A DNA stretch of 64,000 bases from Brachionus manjavacas (lineage: Eukaryota; Rotifera; Eurotatoria; Ploima; Brachionidae), in NCBI GenBank assembly GCA_019054805.1, contig JAHQIY010000014.1:496001-560000 (forward strand). Direction: 5' to 3'. Made by a program: the position numbers and the translations under genes. The notes beneath the pieces were generated by a model. The model worked only from the letters and a program-made list of their open reading frames with translations, did no database searches and was not told the origin of the DNA. This document shows positions 6,555-63,204 of this stretch, piece after piece. Numbering within the stretch: the first letter of the stretch is position 1; each line of letters opens with the position of its first letter.

Positions 6555-6662
6555 TATACCATTAATGAGAATAGATAAAAATTTTAAAAATTAATTTTTA
6601 TTGTCATTAAGACTGAATAATTATATTAAATATCAAAAATATTTAATTAAAATAAAATTTTT

Positions 6663-6950
6663 TCAGTAAAATCCCGGATATGATCCATAGGATTGAGGTG
6701 AAGTTGGAAATGATGATTGAGCTGGGAAATATGAAAGTGGTGTTGCTTGAGCTGCACTGAATTGAGGGGTTGACCAGGCACCGGTTTGATCGTAGGCTGG
6801 ATATGATGGGCCAAAACTAGAGAATTGTGGAATTTGACCATATGATGGCTGAGCGAATGAAGCTGATGGGTATCCTTTTTTTGAATAAAATGAATTTTAA
6901 TTAAAGAATAATACTAATGATTTTTTTTTAGTTTTGTTACCGTTAAACAT
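6663..6950 (-). CDS. 73-residue Y/F/S/P/Q-rich protein, copy 1
   Basis: Exon 1 is only ATGTTTAACG (6950-6941). A 66 bp intron (6940-6875) runs from GTAAC to a T-rich AG. Exon 2 is 6874-6663 and ends in TGA. The joined reading frame gives MFNGYPSASFAQPSYG at the start and SYGSYPGFY at the end, 73 residues. The protein has one acidic residue, no Lys, Arg, His or Glu, about eight Tyr and eight Phe, and many Ser, Pro and Gln. This composition is that of a prion-like low-complexity domain. There is no signal peptide or membrane segment. I do not recognise the family. All four copies keep the frame, the 10-base first exon and the splice sites, which argues that they are genes and not debris. Confidence 0.7.
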
Positions 6951-7320
6951 TTTTAGACTGATATATTTTTGTAATTTTTCAATAAAAAATTTAAGGTTTT
7001 TATAAGCCAGGTCTGAGGTATTTGGTTGTAACTATTTATGCTCAATTCACTCATGCTTGGAATTTTGAACTTGAAAATGCTATTAAAAATTTGGAAATAA
7101 TAACCATTTATTTTAATTTTATACTAAGCAAATTTTATATTAAGCATGTATTTTATAAAGAATTTTTTGAATTTATTTTTTAATTAATCGACAAATTTTT
7201 TTGACATTATATTTTCCATATTTTAAATTAAACCTCAAGCTTGAGTTGATTTTCTTTCGCTTAAAAACAAGTTTCAAAAATTCTAAGTTCATTACAAAAA
7301 AAATAAAAATAATTTACCAA
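6951..7320. promoter_or_regulatory. Shared divergent upstream region, copies 1 and 2
   Basis: The 370 bp separate two start codons that face away from each other, so both promoters must lie here if the genes are transcribed. No motif was recognised. A short region near 7010-7070 is less AT-rich than the rest. The function is inferred from position only. Confidence 0.35.
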
Positions 7321-7607
7321 ATGTTTAACGGTAAAAAAAATCAAAAAAATCATTAGTATTATTCTTTAATTAAAATTCATTTTATTCAAAAAAAGGATAC
7401 CCATCAGATTCATTCGCTCAGCCATCATATGGTCAAGTTCCACAATTCTCTAGTTTTGGCCCATCATATCCAGCCTACGATCAAACCGGTGCCTGGTCAA
7501 CCCCTCAATTCAGTGCAGCTCAAACAACACCACTTTCATATTTCCCAGCTCAATCATCATTTCCAACTTCACCTCAATCCTATGGATCATATCCGGGATT
7601 TTACTGA
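7321..7607 (+). CDS. 73-residue Y/F/S/P/Q-rich protein, copy 2
   Basis: Exon 1 is 7321-7330, the intron 7331-7395 (65 bp; the donor is GTAAAA, weaker than the GTAACA of the other copies) and exon 2 is 7396-7607. The product is 73 residues and differs from copy 1 at a few positions: Asp replaces Ala in the YPSAS motif, Val replaces Ile in GQIPQ, and AQTTP replaces AQATP. It is one of four near-identical genes and lies head to head with copy 1. The function is unknown. The low charge and regular spacing of aromatic residues suggest an intrinsically disordered, self-associating protein; that is inference from composition. Confidence 0.68.
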
Positions 7608-7878
7608 AAAAATTTTATTTTTATTTAAAATTTTTGATATTTAATATAATTATGCAGTCTTAATGACAATAAAATATTAATTTTTAAAATTTTTATCTAT
7701 TCTCATTAATGGTTTTTATTGATCAAAAATTAAAACTATTTAAAAGAAAAAAACAAAATTAAATTTTTAAAATAAAATTTATAAATTCTTATTTAAAAAT
7801 TTACAAAAATACAATTCAACTCATATATGTTTCATTAAAAAAAAAAGCAAAAAATAAATTTAAAACTATTTTTATATT

Positions 7879-8592
7879 CTAGACTTCAACTTCTTGAGTC
7901 CATTCAATTTGAGTTTTACTTGCATCGCCAATTATTTTGTTAATACGATTCCATTCTCTTTCTTTTTCGTAATCAATATCAAGATTGAATCTAACTTTTG
8001 GTTTCTGACTTGAATTAGCCTGAACACTAGAATTGGCCAGTTCCGCACATTCGCTATTTGAAGACGCTTCATTCATTCCATGTTCATTATTCTTTAGGCA
8101 TGAGCTCTTTGTCTTCATTATAGAAAGTGGGGTTTTAGGATGTGTATTCAAATATTTTATCTGCGACTTATCAAAGCCTTCAAAGCCAAAGTCATCTTGT
8201 TCCTCGTTCAATTCAGCATTTTCGTCGCTTAATGAAGTGATTTCATTAGCGTTCGAATCACTTGAATTGTGAATGATAATGCCATCGAAGTCAGTGTTGC
8301 TCTTGATATTTTCGACAAATGTTTCAACGTCGGCATCGGAAGAAGTGTTCAGAAATTCATCTGAAATTGGTGATGAGCCGACATTTGGAAAGTTGGTCAC
8401 ATTTGCAAAACCTATGCTGCTTATTTCAATATCGTTCAGGTCAGTCGTTGAATCGAGACCGGTACTATCTAAATTTGTGTTGTTATTGCTATTATTTAGA
8501 CCGGAATCGACCGGGGAAGACATACGAATAAATCCATCTTCTACCAAATTTGAGGTTTCTTCATCGTCATCATTATCATTTAGGTGATCATG
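7879..8592 (-). CDS. Acidic disordered protein with KVRF motif, 3' exon
   Basis: An open exon of 238 codons including the stop is preceded by a TTTAAAG acceptor at 8593-8594. No in-frame ATG lies before Met at about 8523, so an upstream exon is expected. It is not seen between here and copy 3, and the first exon could lie beyond 9.7 kb. The protein is rich in Asn, Ser, Asp and Glu. Near the C-terminus it has KPKVRFNLDIDYEKEREW, a basic-hydrophobic cluster whose KVRF core fits the RVxF docking site for protein phosphatase 1. The tail (IEWTQEVEV) is likely structured. I cannot name the family; a PP1-interacting regulatory protein is one reading. The small-gene copies 2 and 3 flank it. Confidence 0.6.
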   Translation of the reverse strand, partial: HDHLNDNDDDEETSNLVEDGFIRMSSPVDSGLNNSNNNTNLDSTGLDSTTDLNDIEISSIGFANVTNFPNVGSSPISDEFLNTSSDADVETFVENIKSNTDFDGIIIHNSSDSNANEITSLSDENAELNEEQDDFGFEGFDKSQIKYLNTHPKTPLSIMKTKSSCLKNNEHGMNEASSNSECAELANSSVQANSSQKPKVRFNLDIDYEKEREWNRINKIIGDASKTQIEWTQEVEV

Positions 8593-8711
8593 CTTTAAAA
8601 ATGAAATTTATTTTTTATTTTGAAATAAAAATGAAGAAAAAATAAGATTGTGTTAAAATTTTTTTATTGTCTGGGAGACGAAGTTTAGTTTAAGATAAAA
8701 ATAAAATTTTT

Positions 8712-8999
8712 TCAGTAAAATCCCGGATATGATCCATAGGATTGAGGTGAAGTTGGAAATGATGATTGAGCTGGGAAATATGAAAGTGGTGTTGCTTGAG
8801 CTGCACTGAATTGAGGATTTGACCAGGCACCGGTTTGATCGTAGGCTGGATATGATGGGCCAAAACTAGAGAATTGTGGAATTTGACCATATGATGGCTG
8901 AGCGAATGAAGCTGATGGGTATCCTTTTTTTGAATAAAATGAATTTTAATTAAAGAATAATACTAATGATTTTTTTTTAGTTTTGTTACCGTTAAACAT
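8712..8999 (-). CDS. 73-residue Y/F/S/P/Q-rich protein, copy 3
   Basis: Exon 1 is 8999-8990, the intron 8989-8924 (66 bp) and exon 2 is 8923-8712. The product is 73 residues. It differs from copy 1 by one visible change, Asn for Thr in the AWSTPQ motif. It shares the AQATP variant and the whole intron with copy 1, which makes copies 1 and 3 closest relatives. The 3' flank is not shared beyond the stop region, so this copy ends next to a different sequence (GGGAGACGAAG). The family is unknown, as for copy 1. Confidence 0.68.
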
Positions 9000-9381
9000 T
9001 TTTAGATTGATAATTATTTAAAATTTGATGATCAAAAAGTACAAGATTTATAAATATTTATAGGTATAAATTTCAAGCATCAATAACTCTAAATTTTTAA
9101 TGAATAACTAGATCTAGCTTACTTTAATATTTCTCCTAAAAATATTTTCAATCAATCATTTAATTCTGATTAATGGAGCATAAGAATAAAAATAAACATT
9201 ACATCTAAAGGTTTTATAAAAAAAAATTCCTATATATTATTTAATTGGGAATTAATTTTTTTTCAAAAATCTAGCTTTTAATTTTAATTTTAAACTATTG
9301 ATGCTTGAAATTTATACCTATAAATATTTATAAATCTTGTACTTTTTGATCATCAAATTTTAAATAATTATCAATCTAAAA
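9000..9381. promoter_or_regulatory. Shared divergent upstream region, copies 3 and 4
   Basis: This region separates two outward-facing start codons. The first and last ~80 bp are inverted copies of each other, so the two genes would have identical proximal promoters. No named motif was recognised. Confidence 0.35.
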
Positions 9382-9662
9382 ATGTTTAACGGTAACAAAA
9401 CTAAAAAAAAGTTTTAATCTTTAATTAAAATTCATTTTATTCAAAAAAAGGATACCCATCAGCTTCATTCGCTCAGCCATCATATGGTCAAATTCCACAA
9501 TTCTCTAGTTTTGGCCCATCTTATCCAGCCTACGATCAAACCGGTGCCTGGTCAACCCCTCAATTCAGTGCAGCTCAAACAACACCACTTTCATATTTCC
9601 CAGCTCAATCATCATTTCCAACTTCACCTCAATCCTATGGATCATATCCGGGATTTTACTGA
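9382..9662 (+). CDS. 73-residue Y/F/S/P/Q-rich protein, copy 4
   Basis: Exon 1 is 9382-9391, the intron 9392-9450 (59 bp) and exon 2 is 9451-9662. The intron is shorter than in the other copies by a small internal deletion, but the donor (GTAACA), the acceptor and the phase are kept. The product is 73 residues and carries AQTTP, as copy 2 does. A silent change (TCT for TCA) is present in the GPSYP segment. The AATAAAA words after the stop are shared with copy 2. The family is unknown. Confidence 0.7.
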
Positions 9663-9952
9663 AAAAATTTTATTTTAATTAAATATTTTTGATATTTAAT
9701 ATAATTATTCAGTCTTAATGACAATAAAATATTAATTTTTTAAGTAATTTTTATCTAATTTTGAAATTAGTTTAAAAATATTATATTTGGATAAAAATAT
9801 GCTAAATTTTATGCTGGCTCAGTGGTTCAATCACTTTAAATATTCAAAAAATTTTAATTTATTGTTTCCTTTTTTTGCTTATGACTTAAAAATTGGTAAT
9901 TATTTAGTCATAATATTATTTTTATTAATCCATCTTTTTATTTAAAATAGTT

Positions 9953-49178: not shown

Positions 49179-51633
49179 TGTCGTATAGAATAAGCAAAAT
49201 TAATTATTTAGCTAAAATTACAATCATTTAAGTAAAAAAATAACCAATGTTCTAATTTAAGTAAAATAATCAATTCTACCTTTTTATTTAGCTAAATTAT
49301 ATTTTTTAAGTTAAATTAAAATGAATTAAGAAAAATAGATTTATTAAAAAAAAATTTTACAATCATAAAATGTTTTATTAAATAACAATTCAAAAACAAA
49401 CTTTATTTTTTATTTACACATTCATTGCTAATTTTATTTCTATGGCATTTTGAATTGCAATAAACACCATTTTTTCTAAAAGTACAGTTTTTCTGACATT
49501 TACCAACACAGTTACATTTCATGAATCCTTGGCCACCAGAAATGAGTTGAAGGCCATTAATCTCTCTTAAAGTTTTTTCACTGCTTAAATCTATGGATTC
49601 AAATTTAATAAGTTTTTGTTTACAAATTTGAAACGAATTTCTTGCATGCCACCCACGTATAATACCATGCTGAGTGGCAAGTTGATATAATTGATGATTA
49701 TTAATTTTTGTAACATATGCAAGAATATTAACAGGATCAGCTGGACCAGGGTCCACATCTGGTACTGTTACTTAAACAGTATCACCTATCTTAGCTTCAC
49801 CTAACTTGTGAATATGCTGTTTCGCCATCAGATCGGCAGCATTTTTTAGATTTTCATGACAGTCGTTTTGAATGTCTTGAATTTTGATGGAATTTGACTG
49901 AAAACAAGGATGCTTAGAGGTGCTAATAGGCAAAATTTCATCATTCTCTTTATCTAATTCAATTCTTCTCTTTCTACCTCTTTTAGCTTGAAAAGAAAAT
50001 TCACTAATTACAGAATCCAACAAACTACTAATGATTTCTTCAGAAACATTTTTCAATATTTTATCATCAATAACTTCTTCAATCATTTCCTCTATTTCAT
50101 TCTCATTAACACTATCTTCAATTTCTTCGTCATAATCGTTCTCATCCTCAATAAAATCCTCATCGTGCTCATTATCATCTACATTAACTGCTTGACTAGT
50201 TGTTGGATTTATCAACAAATCTTCTATTTCTTCAATATTCTATTTAATTAACAGATAGAAAATAAAATTAAGATAAAATTTTTGTTATCAATTATACCTG
50301 TAAATGTTCAGGTGAATTGTTTACAGTATTATTTTTCAATAACTTAGAAAAATTCAATTATAATTAATTAAGCAATTAACATAAAAATAAAAATTGAGAA
50401 AAAATTACTTGTTCTAATTCTTCCTCAGTATTGATATGAGTAAGTAAATCTTTTGGAATGGATGAAATTCCCGCTCCATAATTCATTTCTTTGCCAAATG
50501 TTGCAAAGTATGGGGTACATTTAATAATACGGTGATATGAATTGTTTTTAGCCATTTGAAAAAATTTTAACCCTAATGACCAATTTGTTGATTTGTTGTC
50601 TTTCATCCATAACGATAACATATTTTTAATATCCGCATTAGCCCGCTCAACTGAGCCCTGAGATTGCGGATGCCTAGGCCTACCGTGTACAATCACCATT
50701 TCTTTCCATATTTTTTTTAACTCTTTAATCACTCTGGCTACAAATTCTCTTCCGTTGTCCATCTGGAGAACAGATGGCGCGCCAATAAGAGTAAAAATCT
50801 CAATTAATCTAATCGCTACTTCTCTAGCCTCTTTCGAAGAAAGTGGACACAGAAAGGACAATTTGTTGTGATGATCCTGATAGTGCATTGTCCATTTTTA
50901 GACGCCATCGGCCATTGGTTGATAATCAATTAAATCTAATTGTCCTCTTTGCATAAAGCTTGATGACACGATTGGTTGAACAACTACTTTTTTACTGCCA
51001 GCTTTGGTGTTCTTTTGCTGGCAGCCAACACACAACTCGATATAGATTTTAACAAATTTATCGCTAATGTTATCAAACCGTTTTTTTATTTTTTTGACGT
51101 TTTATTCATCCCACCATGACCTACAATTTTGTGATGAAAATCAATGTCATCAAACATTGATTCAAAAGAACAAACATATTTTATTGAATTTTCGTCTTTT
51201 TCGAACACGATTAGACGATTATATTTGTTCCACCGATTTCCATTACTTTGAATCGTGACATTAAGTAATAAGTTTTTGGATCTTTAGTGTTCGGATTTAG
51301 CTTTTCTCTTAAAATTGTATCGATTTTATCTTGAACCTCAGCCTTCGAATAAACTTTTCTTGAATTAGGAAATTGTTTTTTAATCAATTCGTAAAAGGCC
51401 TCTTTGTGATTATATTCGGACATTTTTCAAAAAGAAAATAAAAGAATAATTTTGAAATTTGTAAGTTTTATTTGTTTCATTTCGATTTAAGTTAAGTACA
51501 TAAAATTATATTAAATTAAGTTAAACTAATCTTTGATTAAAGTTAAATAATAATCAGTTTTCCTATTCTAGTAAAATTGCTTTTTTTATTTAATTTTAGC
51601 TAAATAAATTAATTTTGCTTATTCTATACGACA
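49179..51633. mobile_element. Ginger-like DNA transposon, 2455 bp
   Basis: The ends are TGTCGTATAGAATAAGCAAA at the left and its complement TTTGCTTATTCTATACGACA... read inwards from 51633 on the right. The terminal inverted repeat extends about 45 bp (...TTATTTAGCTAAAATTA), followed by TTTAAGT-type subterminal words. TGTA is duplicated on both sides (49175-49178 and 51634-51637). A 4 bp duplication and a TGT start fit Ginger elements, cut-and-paste transposons whose integrase derives from LTR elements. The element holds one minus-strand gene. Confidence 0.82.
49403..51423 (-). pseudogene. KRBA2-like integrase gene, decayed
   Basis: The N-terminal piece (51423-51211) is MSEYNHKEAFYELIKKQFPN, then HHKIVGHGGMNKT of the zinc-binding domain near 51130, where stops appear. 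The integrase core (50888-50409) has QMDNGREFVARVI and GRPRHPQSQGSVERANADI, the second Asp and the Glu of the DDE triad. The first Asp lies upstream, near QLDLIDYQPMADG (about 50910-50940), beside a stop. Two introns follow (50408-50343, 66 bp, and 50297-50240, 58 bp), then an acidic linker, RGRKRR, and a stop at 49772. The last part (49756-49403) is VPDVDPGPADPVNILAYVTK and a Cys-rich end (KCNCVGKCQKNC). The architecture is that of proteins annotated KRBA2-like in invertebrates. At least three stops or frameshifts disable it. Confidence 0.8.
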
Positions 51634-53633: not shown

Positions 53634-54430
53634 TTTTAAAAGTAAGGATTGGCTTCATTAAAATTTCGGGCATTTCGAATTAATTAATCATTTTAAAATG
53701 TTTTTTTTATGTTGTCTTGTTAAATTATTACAACTATACACATATTAATTAATATGATATGTTTTATCAACTTTTTCAAAGCAATAATCAAATAACGAGC
53801 GTCACTTTGAAAAAAATATTTTATTTTATGAGATAATGTAATTTTTTGAACATTCAATAAAAAAATTTTGAAAACATTAGGGTTCATCGAACATCAAAAA
53901 TAAAACGGTTCAAATTATTCAAATAAATTAAGTTTTAAAAATTGCCTCAAAAAACTAAATAAATTTTTGAAGAAAAAAAGAATTTTAATTAGTATAATGC
54001 ACCTTTTCTAAAAGTATCTTTAAGTTTAATTTTAAAATAAGTTCAGAACTATGGATTTATTTTAAATTAATTAAATTAATTCTAAATTTCAAACTTATTA
54101 TTTTAAATTTTAAAAAAGTTATTAAATTTCTAAAATGGCAGATATTTTTTGCAATTTATTTTTGCTTTAATTGATACAGGACTGACATTACTCATAGAAC
54201 AACAGTGTTTTTCAATTGTTAATTGATTAAACATATTTTTCAAAAAAATTTTTCATATCATTAAAAAAATTTATATTTTTTTAATTTTTTTAAAAAAGAT
54301 GTCATTTTGAAATCGATTGTAATTTTTTATATTTCTTTTTGTTTGAAAAAAATAATTTTTCTTGAATTTCAAAGCATGGTCAGATTTAATGACATATCAT
54401 TGAAATGGGAAAGTTTTTTTTTGAAAAAAA
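53634..54430 (+). repeat. Direct repeat unit 1, upstream of LINE
   Basis: Starting TAAGGATTGGCTTCATTAAA, this stretch recurs at 59609-60410 with a few indels over about 800 bp. It ends inside the first codons of the LINE at 54307 (GCATGGTCAG.TTTAATGACA). Confidence 0.85.
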
Positions 54431-56160
54431 GTGATGTTGTTTTGTTATCTACTTATATTGGAATTCAGACCAAGATTATCCAAAATCTTAACGAATTCTT
54501 TGTTCCATTATTATATGAGCTCTTTAATAATTGTTTATTATTTAAAAATATTCCGGAAGACTGGAAAATTGCCATTGTTAATCCTTTATTTAAAAATAAA
54601 GGTGACAGGTCAGATATAAACAATTATCGGGGGATATCAATCCTATCACCAATAGCAAAAATCTTTGAAAAACTTTTAGCAAAACAGATATCTTATTATT
54701 TTGAATCGAATAAGATTTTATTCAAAGGACAACATGGTTTTAGAAACGGACATTCTTGTCAAACAGTAATCCATTAGTATATCAGTGAAATAAATAAAGC
54801 TAAAGAAAATAAACTAACAACTGTTTCTTTGTTTATTGACTTTAGGAAAGCATTTGATGTAATTGATTCAAATTTATTACTTTTAAAACTTTTTCACTAT
54901 GGTTTTGATAATTCTTCTTTGGGTCTTCTTTCAAACTATTTTGAAAATAGATCTCAGATAGTTAGAATTGGTTGTGAAAAGTCTAATCCAGTAAAATTAA
55001 AATTAGGTGTCCCGCAAGGATCTGTCCTGGGTCCACTGCTATTTCTTATTTTTGTCAATGATTTACCATTTTTATTTAAAAATTTAAGTATTAAAATGTT
55101 TGCAGATGATACAACAATAAGTATCTCTGAAAAAGACCTTGAAACTTCTTTGATAAAATTAAATGTTACAACAAAAAATTTAAATGAATGGTGTATTTTT
55201 AACAGAATTGATATAAACTGGTCAAAAACTTTTTGCATGATTTTTGAAAATAGGAAAAAATTATATCCAGATAAGATTAGAGTAGGTAATGAAGACATAT
55301 TGGTTGTAAAGGAAATCTGCTTATTAGGCTTCATAATTGATCAAAATCTTTATTTTACCAAATTTGTATCTAATTTATCAATTCAAGTTAATAGGAAATT
55401 ATTTTCTATCAAGAGAATTTTCTATCTTGCTACTTCAGTAAAGATACAGTTTTTAAGACTTTTATCCTCCAGTATTTTGACTATTGCTCTACGCTTTTAT
55501 GCTATTTTTCAAAAGAAGCAATAAATAAATTAGCTAAAAGTTATTATATCTCTATCATAAAACTTTTAAATCTTAAGCTAGAAGCAAACAGCTTTAATGA
55601 AATAAATAACGCTTTAGAAAAGTATGGTCTTTATTCATTTCAACATCGAATTTTTGAAAGGATGCTAACTTTTTCTTATAAATGTCTACTTTATTTCAAT
55701 GCTCCGCTAATTCTTAAAGAAAAATTAAAGAAAAATGACTCAAAAAATTTGAATTATATTTTAAGGAACAGTAATAACCTTATTGAACCAATGGCCAAAT
55801 CAAAAAGTGGAGAAAAAACATTTGAACATTTTTATTCAAGATTAATAAATTGCTTTGTGATCAAGAGATCAATGTTGAAGTTTTCAACGTTTAAGCTATC
55901 AATTTTCAATAATATAAATTTAATTTACACAGATTTTGTTTCTAAATTTGAATTGTTTAACTTAAATAGCTTATTGTTAAATTTTTTCAAATAACTATTA
56001 AATCAATAACTCTATTCAATTTTCATAAATTTTTTTTTAATATTTTTAATATATGTATTTTTTTTTTATTAATAATTAATTAAATAAATGAAGTGTTAAT
56101 CAGTCTCATGAGGCATGGGCACTAGCCTGTTGATTAACCTTGAATAATAAAAAAATAAAA
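54307..56160 (+). pseudogene. LINE reverse transcriptase, nearly complete domain
   Basis: The frame has one TAG at 54775-54777 and a frameshift near 55522. Motifs run in order: NPLFKNKGDRSDINNYRGIS, FEKLLAKQISYYFE, LFIDFRKAFDVID (first catalytic Asp), GVPQGSVLGPLLF and IKMFADDTTI (catalytic Asp pair). The C-terminal region runs to a stop at 55992. The 3' end has GAGGCATGGGCACTAGCCTG and an AATAAAAAAATAAAAAAAA tail. It is a CR1/Jockey-type non-LTR element of a different family from the fragments at 20-30 kb. The endonuclease part is missing. It is inactive but young. Confidence 0.85.
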
Positions 56161-57821: not shown

Positions 57822-60800
57822 TCAATCGCTATTATTGCTAGTATTTAGATTATTATAGCTTTGACTATTGCCGTTTGTGCTGTCTAGTATCGGTGTAGCA
57901 GAGTAGCAGAGTTTAAATGTGTACGGATATTTGCTAGCTATATTTTAAAGTAAGTCAAAATGTGTCTAATTTAAAAATTCTAAAAATATAAAAATAAGAA
58001 TATTTACATGGATGATCAATATCTGTGTGATTAGTTAGTATGAGAGCTTCAGTGCAGTCAGCAATATTATTCCATTCAGCAAGTCCGGTTGTGGATTTCT
58101 CAGCTATTTTTGTTTAATAAGGTATAATTTAGAGTCTTGAACATTTTATGCAATACTTTGTGGTGAGGACTGGACCGAGTCCAATGGCAAAATAAGGCTA
58201 AGGTGCCGACTGGGCACATTTTTTCAAAATAATTTCAATTTAGTTTAGATCAGTATTTTCAAGCAAACTTAGTTTTCAGCATTCATTCAAAGAATTTTTC
58301 ATTGAATTTAAAAATTAGCAACCTTAGAACTCTATTTGTCTGAGCTAACAAAATTTTTTCTTCAAAATAAATCTCAAAATTTTTGTGAAGATTTTCTTCC
58401 AGAAATTTATTTTGCCATTTTTTTCAAATGAAGTATTTAAGTCGCTGTGAAGTAATCCTAATTTTCGTTCAACTTTGCGTTGGAAGTATTGCAAGAATTT
58501 TGTATTTTTTAATATTTTTTTGAAATTTCAACTTACATTTTTTTTGAAAAACTTTTACTTTAGTGGGAGCTTTGGCACCAGCGTTCAAAAAAAGCTTCAT
58601 TAAAAAAAAATTAAAATTTTTCTAAATGTTTATTTCTTCTATTTTGGTAATTACCTGAGCCACATCTTGCTCGGAGAACCCGGGCGGTGCATTGAACCAG
58701 TGGAGCACATTGGCAGGAGCAACAGGTTTGTTTTTGGAAGCAGTCTCATTAGTCGAGTAGCGATTGTTGCGGCAATTGGCAAAGTCTTTGTAACTCGGGG
58801 TTCCATCGGGCAGTTCGCCTGGTTTAATCGCCGGCTTAAGCTCGTTCTGGTTGCTCACGTGAATATGAATTTTTCTTCCGAATATGTAGACATTGTTTAT
58901 GTATTGTAAAAAGTTGAGAATTGAATCAGAAGCGTTCATCATGGCCATGGCTGAGCCCTCTTTGGTGATCAAAAATTTGATCCTTTCAACATTTCCGTAC
59001 AAGCACAGCAAGTTAAATAGACGATCACAGTTGAACTTGGTGGTGCATAGATTGTTGATCATCAGGATCAATTGGTTGTCGCTGTTGTGTCGCGAGTTGT
59101 TCATCAGTGACGGCAATGAGTCCTTTTTGTTAGACTGGTAGCCGTTTCGGTCGCCTTGACCATTCGACCCGTTCGACCTGTTCATTTGATAAGACTTGTG
59201 GGACTGATTGGTTTGCCGCTGGTTATATGGAGATCGGTTATCTTTGGGTGTTTGGAGCAAAGGCGTTTCTGTTCAATAGAAAATTTATCTCAATTTTATT
59301 TTGGCATTTTTTTTTTCCAAATTTTTTTAATAAATTTTTTAATTTTTTATTTCTCTAAAGATGCTTTAGTTCAATTATTTGATAAAAGTTTTTTTATCAG
59401 AATAAAATAGTACTGCAAATGTCAATTTTATGTTTAATCATTAGAGTTAGGGAGCTTATGTTTATAATAAATGGAAACGATTTACTATTATTTTTAATAA
59501 GCACATTTAATGTGTTCGTTTTAGAGATTAGAAGGTATCAAGGAAAATAAATGTTTGTTTGTATTGAATGTTTGCCAAAGATCTTAGTAATTTTGGTTAT
59601 TGAATTTTAAAAGTAAGGATTGGCTTCATTAAAATTTCGGGCATTTCGAATTAATTAATCATTTTAAAATGTTTTTTTTATGTTGTCTTGTTAAATTATT
59701 ACAACTTTACACATATTAATTAATATGATATGTTTTATCAATTTTTTCAAAGCAATAATCAAATAACGAGCGTCACTTTGAAAAAAATATTTTATTTTAT
59801 GAGATAATGTAATTTTTTGAACATTCAATAAAAATTTTTGAAAACATTAGGGTTCATCGAACATCAAAAATAAAACGGTTCAAATTATTCAAATAAATTA
59901 AGTTTTAAAAATTGCCTCAAAAAACTAAATAAATTTTTGAAGAAAAAAAGAATTTTAATTAGTATAATGCACCTTTTCTAAAAGTATCTTTAAGTTTAAT
60001 TTAAAATAGGTTCAGAACTATGGATTTATTTTAAATTAATTAAATTAATTCTAAATTTCAAACTTAATAATTAAAAGATATATTTAAAATTAACACAAAT
60101 AAATAAAGTTATTAAATTTCTAAAATGGCAGATATTTTTTGCAATTTATTTTTGCTTTAATTGATACAGGACTGACATTACTCATAGAACAACAGTGTTA
60201 TTTTTCAATTGTTAATTGATTAAACATATTTTTCAAAAAAATTTTTCATATCATTAAAAAAATTTATATTTTTTTTTAATTTTTTTAAAAAAGATGTCAT
60301 TTTGAAATCGATTGTAATTTTTTATATTTCTTTTTGTTTGAAAAAAATAATTTTTCTTGAATTTCAAAGCATGGTCAGCTTTAATGACATATCATTGAAA
60401 TGGGAAAGTTGAAATTGGGAAACTTTTTTTTTGAAAAAAAGTGATGTTTTTTTGTTTTTTTTACTTATATGATATGATGAAAAATTTTTTATCGATTAAA
60501 ACAAAAATTTGCTTTCTTTGTTTATTTTGTGGCTTATTTAATGACTAAAAATTGTTTCATGTGAAAATGTTTAATTTTTGCCAAGGCTGGATTTATTTAA
60601 TAGCGGAATTTTGAATTACAAAAAAATAAATTTAAAATTAAAATAATTTTTTTACTATGTGCCTAAAAGATGTTCTGGTACATATATTAGCTAATAAATA
60701 TGCAAATACTTTTTTTTGATTGTAACTATTTAAATTAGCTAATATATTTTGCAGAACAACTTTTAGACTCTTAATAAAAAAGTCATTTTAATTTAAATTT

Positions 60801-62113
60801 ATTTTTGCTTTAACTCACAGTTCTTGATGTAAGACTTATCCATGAGAGTAAAGTAAAAAATATTCATAAAAAGTTAAAAATAATTTTAGATATAATTCAA
60901 TCAATTTAATTCTAAAAAATTAAATAAAGTCTCAAAGTTCACTTTTAATTAATCATTTTTAATTAATAGAGAAAAAAATAATATGAGCTAAATATTTTAT
61001 CAAATTTATTGATATAACGATAAGAGAGCAATAAATTATTTAATTAGTTTTTTAATTGCTGTTTTTAAGACAAGTCATGAAAACTGGCTCGACTTCAGTC
61101 ATCATTTTCAAGTAAATCCATTGAAAATAAAATGTCTTAGAGTGAGAGAGAAAGTTTTAATTCTTCAAATGTCCATTTTTAGAGTCACTACGCAGTAAGA
61201 CAAACTAAATTACATCTCTGGGATAAGTGGTTTAATAACACATATAAAAATTGAATAAAACAAATCTTTTTCTATACAAAAATTTAATTATCGATAAAAA
61301 AAATATTTTTATCATGGTCAATGAGAAATTCATATTTAAGACATAAAATCGGACAAAAAAAGGGTCGGTAGTGAAATAAAGCAACAACTTACTTTGACTG
61401 TCCATATCTCTTGTGTAGTCCCACTGGTCTTGATCATTACGACCAACTTTCAAAGTGTTGATCTAAATAAAAAAAAATAAAAAAAATAAATTTGAATAAA
61501 TTTTCATTACTTTTGAAAAGTCAATTTTGAGGGTACAGCAGCCCGAGTAAATGTCGGCGTTGTCGAGCTCTTCCTTGGCCCTTTCGGCCGAATCCCTAGT
61601 GGCAAACTCGACCAGCGCCTGCACACCATTCTTTTTAGTAATTACAATGCGGTATATTTGACCGAACGCCGAGCTGATCGTGTTTATGACATCGACAGTA
61701 ATGGGATAGAGAGCATTGTGAACAGTGTAGCAGAGAACGACACCTTGACACGAGTCATCATTGTTGGCGTCGTTGGTCTCGTATTTGTTGACCAGCTTCT
61801 GGTTGAGAGAATAGTTGAAGAAGCAGGTGGAGTTGGCTATGGTTATGGGATTTCGAGCCGAGTCGTTCACTAGGTTTATGGAGGAGGTTATTTCTTCGAA
61901 TTGGATGAGAGCCTGACGCTTTCGAGGCATCAGTATTATGCGCTCGATGATGCCGTATCGATCGAGTGCTTCGCGCAGGTCGCCCTCTGTGGTGTACTCG
62001 GATAGGTTGCGCGCGTGCACCACATAGCTGGGCGACGGTTTCTGAGCGTTGCTTAGGGATGGCGACGACGAGTCTGTCTTCATTCGTTTGTTGGGAGGCG
62101 CAATATTTGACAT
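57822..62113 (-). CDS. hnRNP L/smooth-like RNA-binding protein
   Basis: Exons are 62113-61511, 61462-61393, 59268-58655, about 58103-58008 and 57937-57822. Phases agree for the first three and the last two. RRM1 is residues 29-103 (SYVVHARNLSEYTTEGDLRE) and RRM2 about 124-202. Exon 2 carries the hnRNP L hallmark NDQDQWDYT. RRM3 runs from about 289 (NQLILMINNLCTTKFNCDRL, NLLCLYGNVERIKFL). A conserved linker (SYKDFANCRNNRYST) leads into RRM4 (NVLHWFNAPPGFSEQD). RRM4 continues in exon 4 (STTGLAEWNNIADCTEALIL) and ends in exon 5 with KYPYTFKLCYSATPIL and an Asn/Ser-rich tail. The protein should bind CA-rich RNA in the nucleus and regulate splicing. About 20 RRM4 residues between exons 3 and 4 are not cleanly placed: KLYLIKQK precedes exon 4 but is one base out of frame. 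No close human paralogue is implied. Confidence 0.85.
59609..60410. repeat. Direct repeat unit 2, in hnRNP L-like intron
   Basis: This copy of 53634-54430 lies in the third gene's 2.1 kb intron. It carries extra bases near 60070-60110 and, after the shared start of the LINE frame, diverges at about 60410-60460. It lacks the reverse transcriptase. Confidence 0.85.
60660..60800. repeat. Small inverted repeat, MITE-related
   Basis: ATATTAGCTAATAAATATGC and TTAGCTAATATATTTTGCAG face each other, and GCAGAACAACTTTTAGACT and TTAATAAAAAAGTCATTT resemble the arm of the MITE at 22781. It is decayed. Confidence 0.4.
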
Positions 62114-63204
62114 TTTAAATATACAATATTTTATTTCGACTTTTTTTCCTTTCTTTGTTTCTTGCCCTAAATAATATAGTGGATTATTTATCTACGAAAC
62201 TAAAATGTCTTACGAATTAGAAGAGAGTTGAGTCAAAGATGAATTTTGTATACGAAACGGATTTGTGAACTAAATACTTCATGTTAATGTTGGCCGAAAT
62301 TATGCTCGATTCTTGCTTGGATTCGGTGTTCGATATTAACATTTTTGGGAGCATGAAATAAATTTTTTTATCATAATTTAAAAAATGTTGAGACGACACA
62401 AAATTTGTCTTCAGTGTTCGATTTTTCTTAAATTCAAGGACAGTCTTGACATCAAATATAGATTGATCATATTTATAAAAAAATCATAATTTTTTTTTAT
62501 TACCTTAACTTAATAAAAAATTTTTTTATTCATTTTTGAATTCGCTCATTTTTGGTATTTCTCAGCTCAGCTTTATAAGTTCACTAATTAAATTTCATTT
62601 TAAATTATTTTATATTTTTATATTTTTTATCTGAAAGATAATTAGTTTGAAACAGAATAAAAAAACTTGAAAAAAAATTGATTTTTATTCAAATATTAAG
62701 AATCCGAAATGATTAATCTAATTTTTTAAATCAATTATCTTATTTAGCTCATCAAAGATTTCCATGTCATCAAAGACAAAACGATACAACTTATTATTTA
62801 AGACTTCATTGCACTTTAAACGGTTTGTAAGTATACAGTGGTGTTCCAAAATTAGTAATTTACGATAATTTACGTAAAATATTGTAAATTTCACGTAAAT
62901 TTATGAAAAAAAATGAATTTTTGTTTATCATTTAACATTGGACGGGTATTAATTGAGCAGTAAATAATATTAAACAGATATTAAATTATATGAGCAGAAA
63001 ATAAATAATAAATAGGACCCAAAAAAAAGTTATAACGGTGAGAACAAATAATAAAAGCGGTAGTAAAAATATATTTCTCTGAACACAAAAAGTATCTTTT
63101 ATTTAAAGAAAAAGTTTTTAAATCAAGTAACATTTAAAAAAAAATAGAAGTGTAATATGTATTAGTATTAATTTTTGCGAGGTCTACCACGTCCTCTTTT
63201 AGTT
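62114..63204. other. Intergenic
   Basis: This holds the 5' flank of the hnRNP L-like gene. Around 62835-62925 are TACAGTGGTGTTCCAAAATT and repeated ATTTACG words, possibly a transposon end. No coding sequence was recognised. Confidence 0.35.

What the first reader, a model, noticed from the sequence alone, without database searches (positions are those of the whole stretch)
6663..9662. Four intact genes for an unknown 73-residue prion-like protein
Four copies keep the same unusual structure: a 10-base first exon (ATGTTTAACG), a 59-66 bp intron and a 212-base second exon that completes a split codon and ends in TGA. The joined protein is exactly 73 residues in every copy. It contains almost only Ser, Pro, Gln, Tyr, Phe, Ala and Gly with one Asp, like the low-complexity domains of FUS-type proteins, yet has no RNA-binding or other domain. 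Preservation of frame, splice sites and length in all four argues for expressed genes. The first reading that comes to hand, an uninterrupted frame starting MVKFHN, is a shadow of this spliced frame.
Basis: partly seen in the sequence, partly recalled or inferred. Interest (0 to 1): 0.78.

Follow-up and report, generated by a model that had tools for sequence, protein, structure and literature searches.

The report
Paired gene cluster for disordered protein
The four tiny spliced genes look like real members of a larger, unplaced animal gene family, arranged largely as back-to-back pairs that seem to overwrite one another, and they encode a short disordered protein of unknown, possibly structural, role.

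Summary
Four copies, as two head-to-head pairs, each have a 10-base coding exon 1, a 59-66 nt intron and a 212-base exon 2, giving exactly 73 residues. Better evidence lies outside the window. Ten diverged relatives sit about 83-138 kb away on the same contig, nine intact (83-90 aa), one frame-shifted. All 14 keep the ATG, a GT donor and an AAAG acceptor. Between subfamilies the frame is under purifying selection (omega 0.35; omega=1 rejected, 2dlnL 17.0).
It is neither a dispersed transposon nor the end of a larger gene, and has no Pfam, NCBIfam or meaningful PDB match. Ten of 14 copies form five divergent pairs, 370-503 bp between start codons. Gene bodies are far more alike than many flanks, which suggests gene conversion. 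The architecture resembles silkmoth chorion gene pairs, but no protein relation is found.
"FUS-like prion" is a loose label. My best reading: an abundantly made, intracellular, disordered assembly protein of a metazoan, perhaps a monogonont rotifer. Coding status is well supported; expression and function are inferred.

The parts
6941..6950 (-). copy A1, coding exon 1 (ATGTTTAACG)
   Evidence: conserved in 14 of 14 family copies as ATGTTYAACR followed by GT
6875..6940 (-). copy A1, intron, 66 nt, GTAACA...AAAG
   Evidence: retention gives an early stop
6663..6874 (-). copy A1, exon 2 to TGA (212 nt)
6597..6602 (-). copy A1, AATAAA polyadenylation-like signal
   Evidence: read from the sequence
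6951..7320 (.). intergenic region between the starts of pair A1/A2, 370 bp (presumed divergent promoter); TATAAA on the minus strand at 6999-7004
   Evidence: promoter role inferred
7321..7330 (+). copy A2, coding exon 1
7331..7395 (+). copy A2, intron, 65 nt
7396..7607 (+). copy A2, exon 2 to TGA
7668..7673 (+). copy A2, AATAAA polyadenylation-like signal
   Evidence: read from the sequence
8990..8999 (-). copy A3, coding exon 1
8924..8989 (-). copy A3, intron, 66 nt
8712..8923 (-). copy A3, exon 2 to TGA
8663..8668 (-). copy A3, AATAAA in a 3' flank that differs from those of the other three copies
   Evidence: read from the sequence
9000..9381 (.). intergenic region between the starts of pair A3/A4, 382 bp (presumed divergent promoter); TATA-like boxes 53 and 63 nt before each ATG
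   Evidence: arms 8971-9095 and 9286-9410 are a 97% inverted repeat
9382..9391 (+). copy A4, coding exon 1
9392..9450 (+). copy A4, intron, 59 nt
9451..9662 (+). copy A4, exon 2 to TGA
9723..9728 (+). copy A4, AATAAA polyadenylation-like signal
   Evidence: read from the sequence

Best explanation
The window holds four intact members of a clustered protein-coding family of an animal, perhaps a monogonont rotifer: 14 copies on one contig, 13 intact. Shown by sequence: the gene model, the head-to-head pairs, purifying selection on the frame between subfamilies, and gene bodies more alike than many flanks. Inferred: each pair is transcribed outwards from a shared region of about 370-500 bp. Transcripts are spliced to give a 73-90 residue, nearly uncharged, Ser/Pro/Gln/Tyr/Phe/Ala-rich disordered protein that stays inside the cell, since no signal peptide is visible. 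Many copies kept alike by gene conversion supply a high dose of one product in some stage or tissue, where the protein self-associates through its aromatic residues as a building or coating material, much as chorion-type multigene families supply eggshell protein.
For: Gene model: 14 of 14 copies keep ATGTTYAACR|GT and AAAG|exon 2; intron retention stops in 14 of 14. AAAG also ends the apparent introns of two neighbouring conserved genes (by eye). Selection: omega 0.35 (GY+F3X4), lnL -741.62 against -750.13 for omega=1; 0.37 (MG+F1X4), -762.28 against -771.51, on the 11 distinct of 13 intact sequences. The 18 A-B pairs printed of 36 (A2 and A4 against nine B) give 0.29-0.40; A4-B8 differences by codon position are 12/17/27. 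A4-B8 CDS identity is 75% against 58+-3 shuffled; intron 66% against 60+-6. Pairs: 10 of 14 copies, 370-503 bp between starts. Conversion-like pattern: B5/B6 bodies 315/315 identical, 5' flanks 73%, 3' flanks 64% (random AT-rich pairs 56-59%). Disorder.
Against: No transcript, protein or orthologue from another species could be examined. Selection within each subfamily is uninformative or confounded by conversion. Flanks are not always diverged: B9/B10 3' flanks are 98-99% identical, B6/B8 5' flanks 95%, A1/A2 3' flanks 84-92%, so recent duplication explains part of the likeness. The first 100 nt after the stop are 71% alike between A4 and B8 (65/92) against 59+-6 for random pairs, so conservation is not confined to the frame. 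An hnRNP-L-like intron nearby ends in TTTAG, not AAAG. TATA-like boxes in 12 of 14 are weak evidence in AT-rich DNA (about 0.8 expected per 160 nt, my estimate); A2 and B4 have none. Nothing here shows expression level, tissue or self-association. The rotifer assignment rests on GC, genome size and Wnt genes.
Confidence: 0.5

Rival explanations
1. The inverted pairs are not there for protein. Read-through transcripts fold into long hairpins that feed small-RNA silencing (hairpin-RNA locus).
For: The two window pairs have arms of 351 nt (96% complementary, 415 nt apart) and 283 nt (95%, 419 nt apart); five head-to-head pairs exist.
Against: The frame is under purifying selection. Each arm has its own ATG and donor pointing outward from the centre, so one transcript across both arms would run antisense through one gene. 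Apart from one fragment and one relic, the genome searches found no other matching sequence as a target.
Confidence: 0.07
2. A non-autonomous transposon or a passive duplicon that happens to carry an old exon.
For: The cluster at 588-647 kb holds retrotransposon-like and transposase-like open frames (my reading of translations) and segmental duplications, for example 601443-607369 against 607639-613565 at 99.6%. One relic lies on another contig (C3).
Against: 14 copies in one 138-kb stretch plus a fragment there and one relic elsewhere in 114 Mb is not transposon-like dispersal. Ends of the similar stretches differ from copy to copy. 13 of 14 copies are intact and omega is 0.35.
Confidence: 0.05
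3. A regulatory low-complexity peptide, such as a condensate or transcription-activation module, acting in the nucleus or on RNA granules, as the reader's FUS comparison suggests.
For: Aromatic/Ser/Gln-rich composition, 16 Tyr+Phe in 73, one charged residue; no confident fold; no signal peptide visible.
Against: No domain match to give a target; Q+N only 9 of 73; many homogenised copies fit a dose-demanding product better than a regulator (inference).
Confidence: 0.2
4. A secreted or reproductive protein (egg coat, glue, seminal) whose true first exon with a signal peptide lies elsewhere.
For: Chorion-like locus design (PMC4639761 passages); divergence between the two subfamilies.
Against: ATG with a GT donor kept in 14 of 14 and a TATA-like box 53-79 nt upstream in 12 of 14; in the five pairs at most 503 bp lie between the starts; no hydrophobic run at the N-terminus by eye.
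Confidence: 0.15

Closest known systems
Silkmoth (Bombyx mori) chorion HcA/HcB gene pairs (PMC4639761; passages seen)
   Same: Clustered family; head-to-head pairs (separated by 330 nt there, 370-503 bp between starts here); minor exon 1 and major exon 2; a short intron in HcA genes (about 80 nt there, 59-66 here); TATA boxes on both sides of the shared region; reported gene conversion and pseudogenes.
   Different: Exon 1 is about 50 nt there and 10 nt here. Paired genes there are of two types (A and B); here both partners encode nearly the same protein. Chorion is secreted and the Hc proteins are high-cysteine (paper), while these proteins show no signal peptide by eye and Cys in only one of 13 intact copies (B3). 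No sequence relation is claimed.
FUS/EWS/TAF15-type low-complexity domains (composition recalled, no call)
   Same: Disordered, rich in Ser, Tyr, Gln, Gly and Pro, few charges.
   Different: Stand-alone 73-90 aa proteins with no RNA-binding or zinc-finger domain match, with much Pro, Phe and Ala; no sequence match found.
Arthropod cuticle-protein genes with a tiny first coding exon (recalled, no call)
   Same: First exon encodes only a few residues, then a short intron.
   Different: There the first exon starts a signal peptide (recalled); here the N-terminus is polar and no domain is found (Pfam).

Membership tests
Chorion-type divergent-pair multigene family (as architecture) | tight head-to-head gene pairs with a short region between starts | tested here: met
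   10 of 14 copies in five pairs, 370-503 bp between start codons; shared promoter activity not testable
Chorion-type divergent-pair multigene family (as architecture) | concerted evolution / gene conversion of gene bodies | tested here: inconclusive
   bodies 92-100% identical in the 15 within-subfamily pairs compared (of 42 among intact copies); 5' flanks at or below 70% in 7 of 15 and 3' flanks (41-180) in 12 of 15; pattern fits conversion, but duplication explains some pairs and no formal conversion test was run
Chorion proteins (as protein family) | signal peptide and secretion | tested here: inconclusive
   N-terminus MFNGYPSASFAQPSYG shows no hydrophobic core by eye; no predictor was run
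Chorion proteins (as protein family) | recognisable domain or sequence match | tested here: not met
   two family proteins (A and B type): no Pfam or NCBIfam match up to E 0.1
FET (FUS/EWS/TAF15) proteins | low-complexity domain coupled to RRM and zinc finger (recalled definition) | tested here: not met
   whole protein is 73-90 aa, no Pfam match
Prion-like domain proteins | Q/N-rich low-complexity segment | tested here: not met
   Q+N 9 of 73 in A4; 0 of 62 windows of 12 at or below 2.2 bits in A4, 4 of 72 in B8; no dedicated prion predictor run
Prion-like domain proteins | self-templating or phase-separating behaviour | not testable with these tools
   needs purified protein
Transposable element | dispersed copies with common ends | tested here: not met
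   14 copies and a fragment in one 138-kb stretch, one relic elsewhere; ends of similarity vary; target-site duplications not examined
Functional protein-coding genes | purifying selection on the reading frame | tested here: met
   omega 0.35, 2dlnL 17.0 against omega=1
Functional protein-coding genes | spliced transcripts and translation | not testable with these tools
   no RNA or protein data held

The most novel reading that the evidence does not exclude
A previously unknown class of intracellular building protein: a chorion-like, concertedly evolving array that mass-produces a signal-less, aromatic-rich disordered protein, for example as a component of the rotifer intracytoplasmic lamina (the layer that lies inside the epidermal syncytium rather than outside it).
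Probability: 0.12. Interest if true: 0.7.

Novelty: new variant of a known kind. Interest (0 to 1): 0.42.

Why it matters
It gives a clean case of an orphan-looking family whose coding status can be supported from one genome: two subfamilies, intact splice signals and a constrained frame separate it from spurious small frames in AT-rich DNA. It also shows a chorion-type design (divergent pairs, tiny first exon, homogenised gene bodies) for a protein with no found relation to eggshell proteins, probably in a different animal group. If the protein is an intracellular assembly material, it offers a short natural sequence for studying aromatic-driven assembly and a candidate component of structures whose proteins are poorly known.

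Tried and rejected
Rejected: exon 2 as the last exon of a larger or parental gene (genome searches gave only family copies, one fragment and one relic; little room between paired starts). Rejected: the MVKFHN frame (a stop in 9 of 10 relatives). Rejected as evidence: differences among the four window copies (five variable codons, four of them replacements). A possible shared promoter signal, CAAGCATGAGT plus TATAAATA, occurs genome-wide only at two family genes, B1 and B10, so it points to no co-regulated genes. I guessed that contig C45 was a food-alga plastid from weak, inverted 5.8S-type matches; a search for the photosystem family PF00124 found none, so that idea was dropped. Pattern-based scans of viral contigs and of bacterial and archaeal genomes confirmed no relative (22 and 70 stretches matched a pattern, none by tblastn at E 1e-3); eukaryote collections are not held. 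Paper searches: 29 papers, 15 listed; of these only passages of PMC11954553 were seen; one listed; two; eight; of these only passages of PMC13403294 were seen; two; passages of PMC4639761 seen; one, not relevant; none. One search searched five peptide strings of the family and found no paper. PMC10395877 was seen only as a listing line and the start of its abstract. The label prion-like was checked by composition and entropy only, and the signal peptide by eye only.
Full report
WHAT IS THERE. The four copies are as described. Each has a 10-nt coding exon, an intron of 66, 65, 66 or 59 nt, and a 212-nt exon 2, giving 73 residues. They lie as two head-to-head pairs: A1(-)/A2(+) with starts at 6950 and 7321, and A3(-)/A4(+) with starts at 8999 and 9382. 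Left and right arms each repeat about 2.05 kb apart. Reading through the intron stops early in each copy, and exon 2 has no in-frame Met, so translation of this frame requires splicing to the upstream ATG.

WHY THE FOUR ALONE PROVE LITTLE. In the four of six pairs compared, the gene bodies are 98-99% identical in DNA. Among the four copies five codons vary, and four of those changes replace a residue. Recent copies of anything would look preserved.

THE FAMILY. A protein search of the whole assembly (114.2 Mb, 61 contigs; the window is C14:496001-560000) finds ten diverged relatives on the same contig at 588.3-640.7 kb, and a weak match on contig C3 (E 0.047 with the A protein, 9.8e-5 with the B protein). 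One short fragment lies at 627773-627877. Of 14 copies with an exon 1, 13 are intact: 73 aa for the four A copies, 83 aa for eight B copies and 90 aa for B3. One, B7x, is frame-shifted near its end. The C3 match has lost the ATG but keeps an intron-like stretch, which suggests DNA copying rather than an mRNA-derived copy (read by eye). A DNA search with exon 2 of A4 finds only the four window copies.

GENE MODEL ACROSS THE FAMILY. All 14 copies keep ATGTTYAACR followed by GT, and an intron of 59-66 nt ending in AAAG. AAAG also ends the apparent introns of a cysteine-desulfurase-like gene and a kinase-like gene nearby, whereas an hnRNP-L-like intron ends in TTTAG (by eye; the first two names are mine from translations). 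A4-B8 identity is 75% for the CDS against 58+-3% for shuffled sequence, but only 66% for the intron against 60+-6%. Exons and splice signals are kept while the intron between them drifts. Against a purely coding reading, the first 100 nt after the stop are 71% alike in A4-B8 (65/92), above the 59+-6% of random AT-rich pairs, so part of the 3' end may be conserved too. The 100 nt before the ATG are not (51/97).

SELECTION. On the 11 distinct sequences among the 13 intact copies, omega is 0.35 (GY+F3X4) or 0.37 (MG+F1X4). Fixing omega at 1 costs 8.5 and 9.2 log-likelihood units, i.e. 2dlnL of 17.0 and 18.5. The 18 A-B pairs printed of 36 have ratios of 0.29-0.40 with dS 0.56-0.79. A4-B8 differences by codon position are 12, 17 and 27. 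In 5000 simulated runs with 75 random substitutions, 4.3% kept the 73-codon frame free of stops. Gene conversion violates the tree assumed by the codon model, but it would act mainly within subfamilies, and the signal comes largely from the A-B comparison.

PAIRS AND HOMOGENISATION. Ten of 14 copies form five head-to-head pairs with 370, 382, 497, 497 and 503 bp between start codons. Intergenic regions of the three B pairs are 74-82% alike in the matching orientation and 60-65% in the other; A against B pairs show no clear orientation (65-72%). I compared 15 of the 42 within-subfamily pairs of intact copies (B3 and B4 not among them). Gene bodies (ATG to stop, intron included) are 92-100% identical. 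The 5' flanks (-150 to -14) are at or below 70% in 7 of 15 and the 3' flanks (41-180) in 12 of 15; random AT-rich pairs give 56-59%. The clearest case is B5/B6: 315/315 in the body, 73% upstream, 64% downstream. This fits gene conversion, though no formal test was run. Results the other way: B9/B10 have 98-99% identical 3' flanks, A1/A2 84-92%, and B6/B8 95% upstream, where recent duplication is enough. Segmental duplications with transposon-like frames rearranged the cluster, for example 601443-607369 against 607639-613565 at 99.6%; copy B4 seems to have lost its promoter at such an end.

PROMOTERS. A TATA-like box lies 53-79 nt before the ATG in 12 of 14 copies (not in A2 and B4). In DNA of about 20% GC this is weak evidence taken alone. 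CAAGCATGAGT occurs exactly upstream of A1, B1 and B10, with near variants in B6, B7x and B8. With a downstream TATAAATA it occurs twice in the genome, both times in this family.

THE PROTEIN. One A and one B protein have no match in Pfam or NCBIfam up to E 0.1, and nothing meaningful in PDB (best E 0.39 for the single protein, 0.57 for the alignment). Scans of viral contigs and of bacterial and archaeal genomes confirmed no relative. AlphaFold2 on an alignment of ten exon-2 sequences gives mean pLDDT 57.4 and pTM 0.14; DSSP returned nothing, so no secondary structure was assigned. This is consistent with disorder, though the alignment was shallow. Copy A4 has 14 S, 11 P, 8 F, 8 Y, 8 Q, 7 A, 6 G and one charged residue. 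It is aromatic-rich, but not Q/N-rich and not low-complexity by a 2.2-bit, 12-residue criterion.

THE ORGANISM. Wnt genes mark a metazoan. Low GC (26 of 32 two-kb stretches of the window at 20-30%; 27% over 204 kb) and 114 Mb fit monogonont rotifers, nine of whose assembled genomes have 24.95-31.14% GC (PMC11954553, passages). This is a possible but unproven assignment; no other taxon was compared.

HOW IT PROBABLY WORKS. Shown: gene model, pairs, constraint, gene bodies more alike than many flanks, lack of known domains. Inferred: divergent transcription from the shared region, splicing, a high dose from many equalised copies, and an intracellular disordered product that associates through aromatic residues. 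[quoted passage not shown] The likeness is architectural. These proteins show no signal peptide by eye and no sequence match, so I do not file them as chorion proteins. The lamina inside the epidermis of a monogonont (mentioned in PMC13403294, passages) is one place for such a product; that link is speculation.

VERDICT. A sound observation with an overstated label. It is a real-looking orphan family with an interesting locus design. The function is open and directly testable.

Noticed in passing
window 7882-8607 (-): A 242-residue open frame lies between the two pairs, downstream of copy A3 on the same strand. It is acidic, with a KVRF near its C-terminus that resembles a protein phosphatase 1 docking motif (recalled). 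No Pfam or NCBIfam match. Pair A3/A4 might lie inside one of its introns (not tested).
   Followed up: partly
G000 C14:592001-599777 and 628994-636847: Large inverted duplication in three pieces (about 90-92%) that includes family copies B3 and B7x, with cysteine-desulfurase-like frames at its edges (by eye).
   Followed up: partly
G000 C14:601443-613565: Tandem 5.9-kb duplication at 99.6% containing retrotransposon-like and transposase-like open frames (by eye); its end lies 42 nt upstream of the start of family copy B4, which lacks a TATA-like box.
   Followed up: no
window 58625-62191 (-): Exons of an RNA-recognition-motif protein that looks like hnRNP L (RRM_8, RRM_1 and RRM_5 matches; the name is recalled).
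   Followed up: no
window 54265-55991 and 50379-50897: Non-LTR-retrotransposon-like open frames (by eye), and a weak integrase-core frame (Pfam rve E 0.0016, below its cut-off).
   Followed up: no
G000 C45:54867-55018 and 138263-138414; C21:836124 and 991420: Weaker 5.8S-type rRNA matches, inverted on C45 and direct on C21, perhaps non-animal contigs. A photosystem family search was negative.
   Followed up: partly
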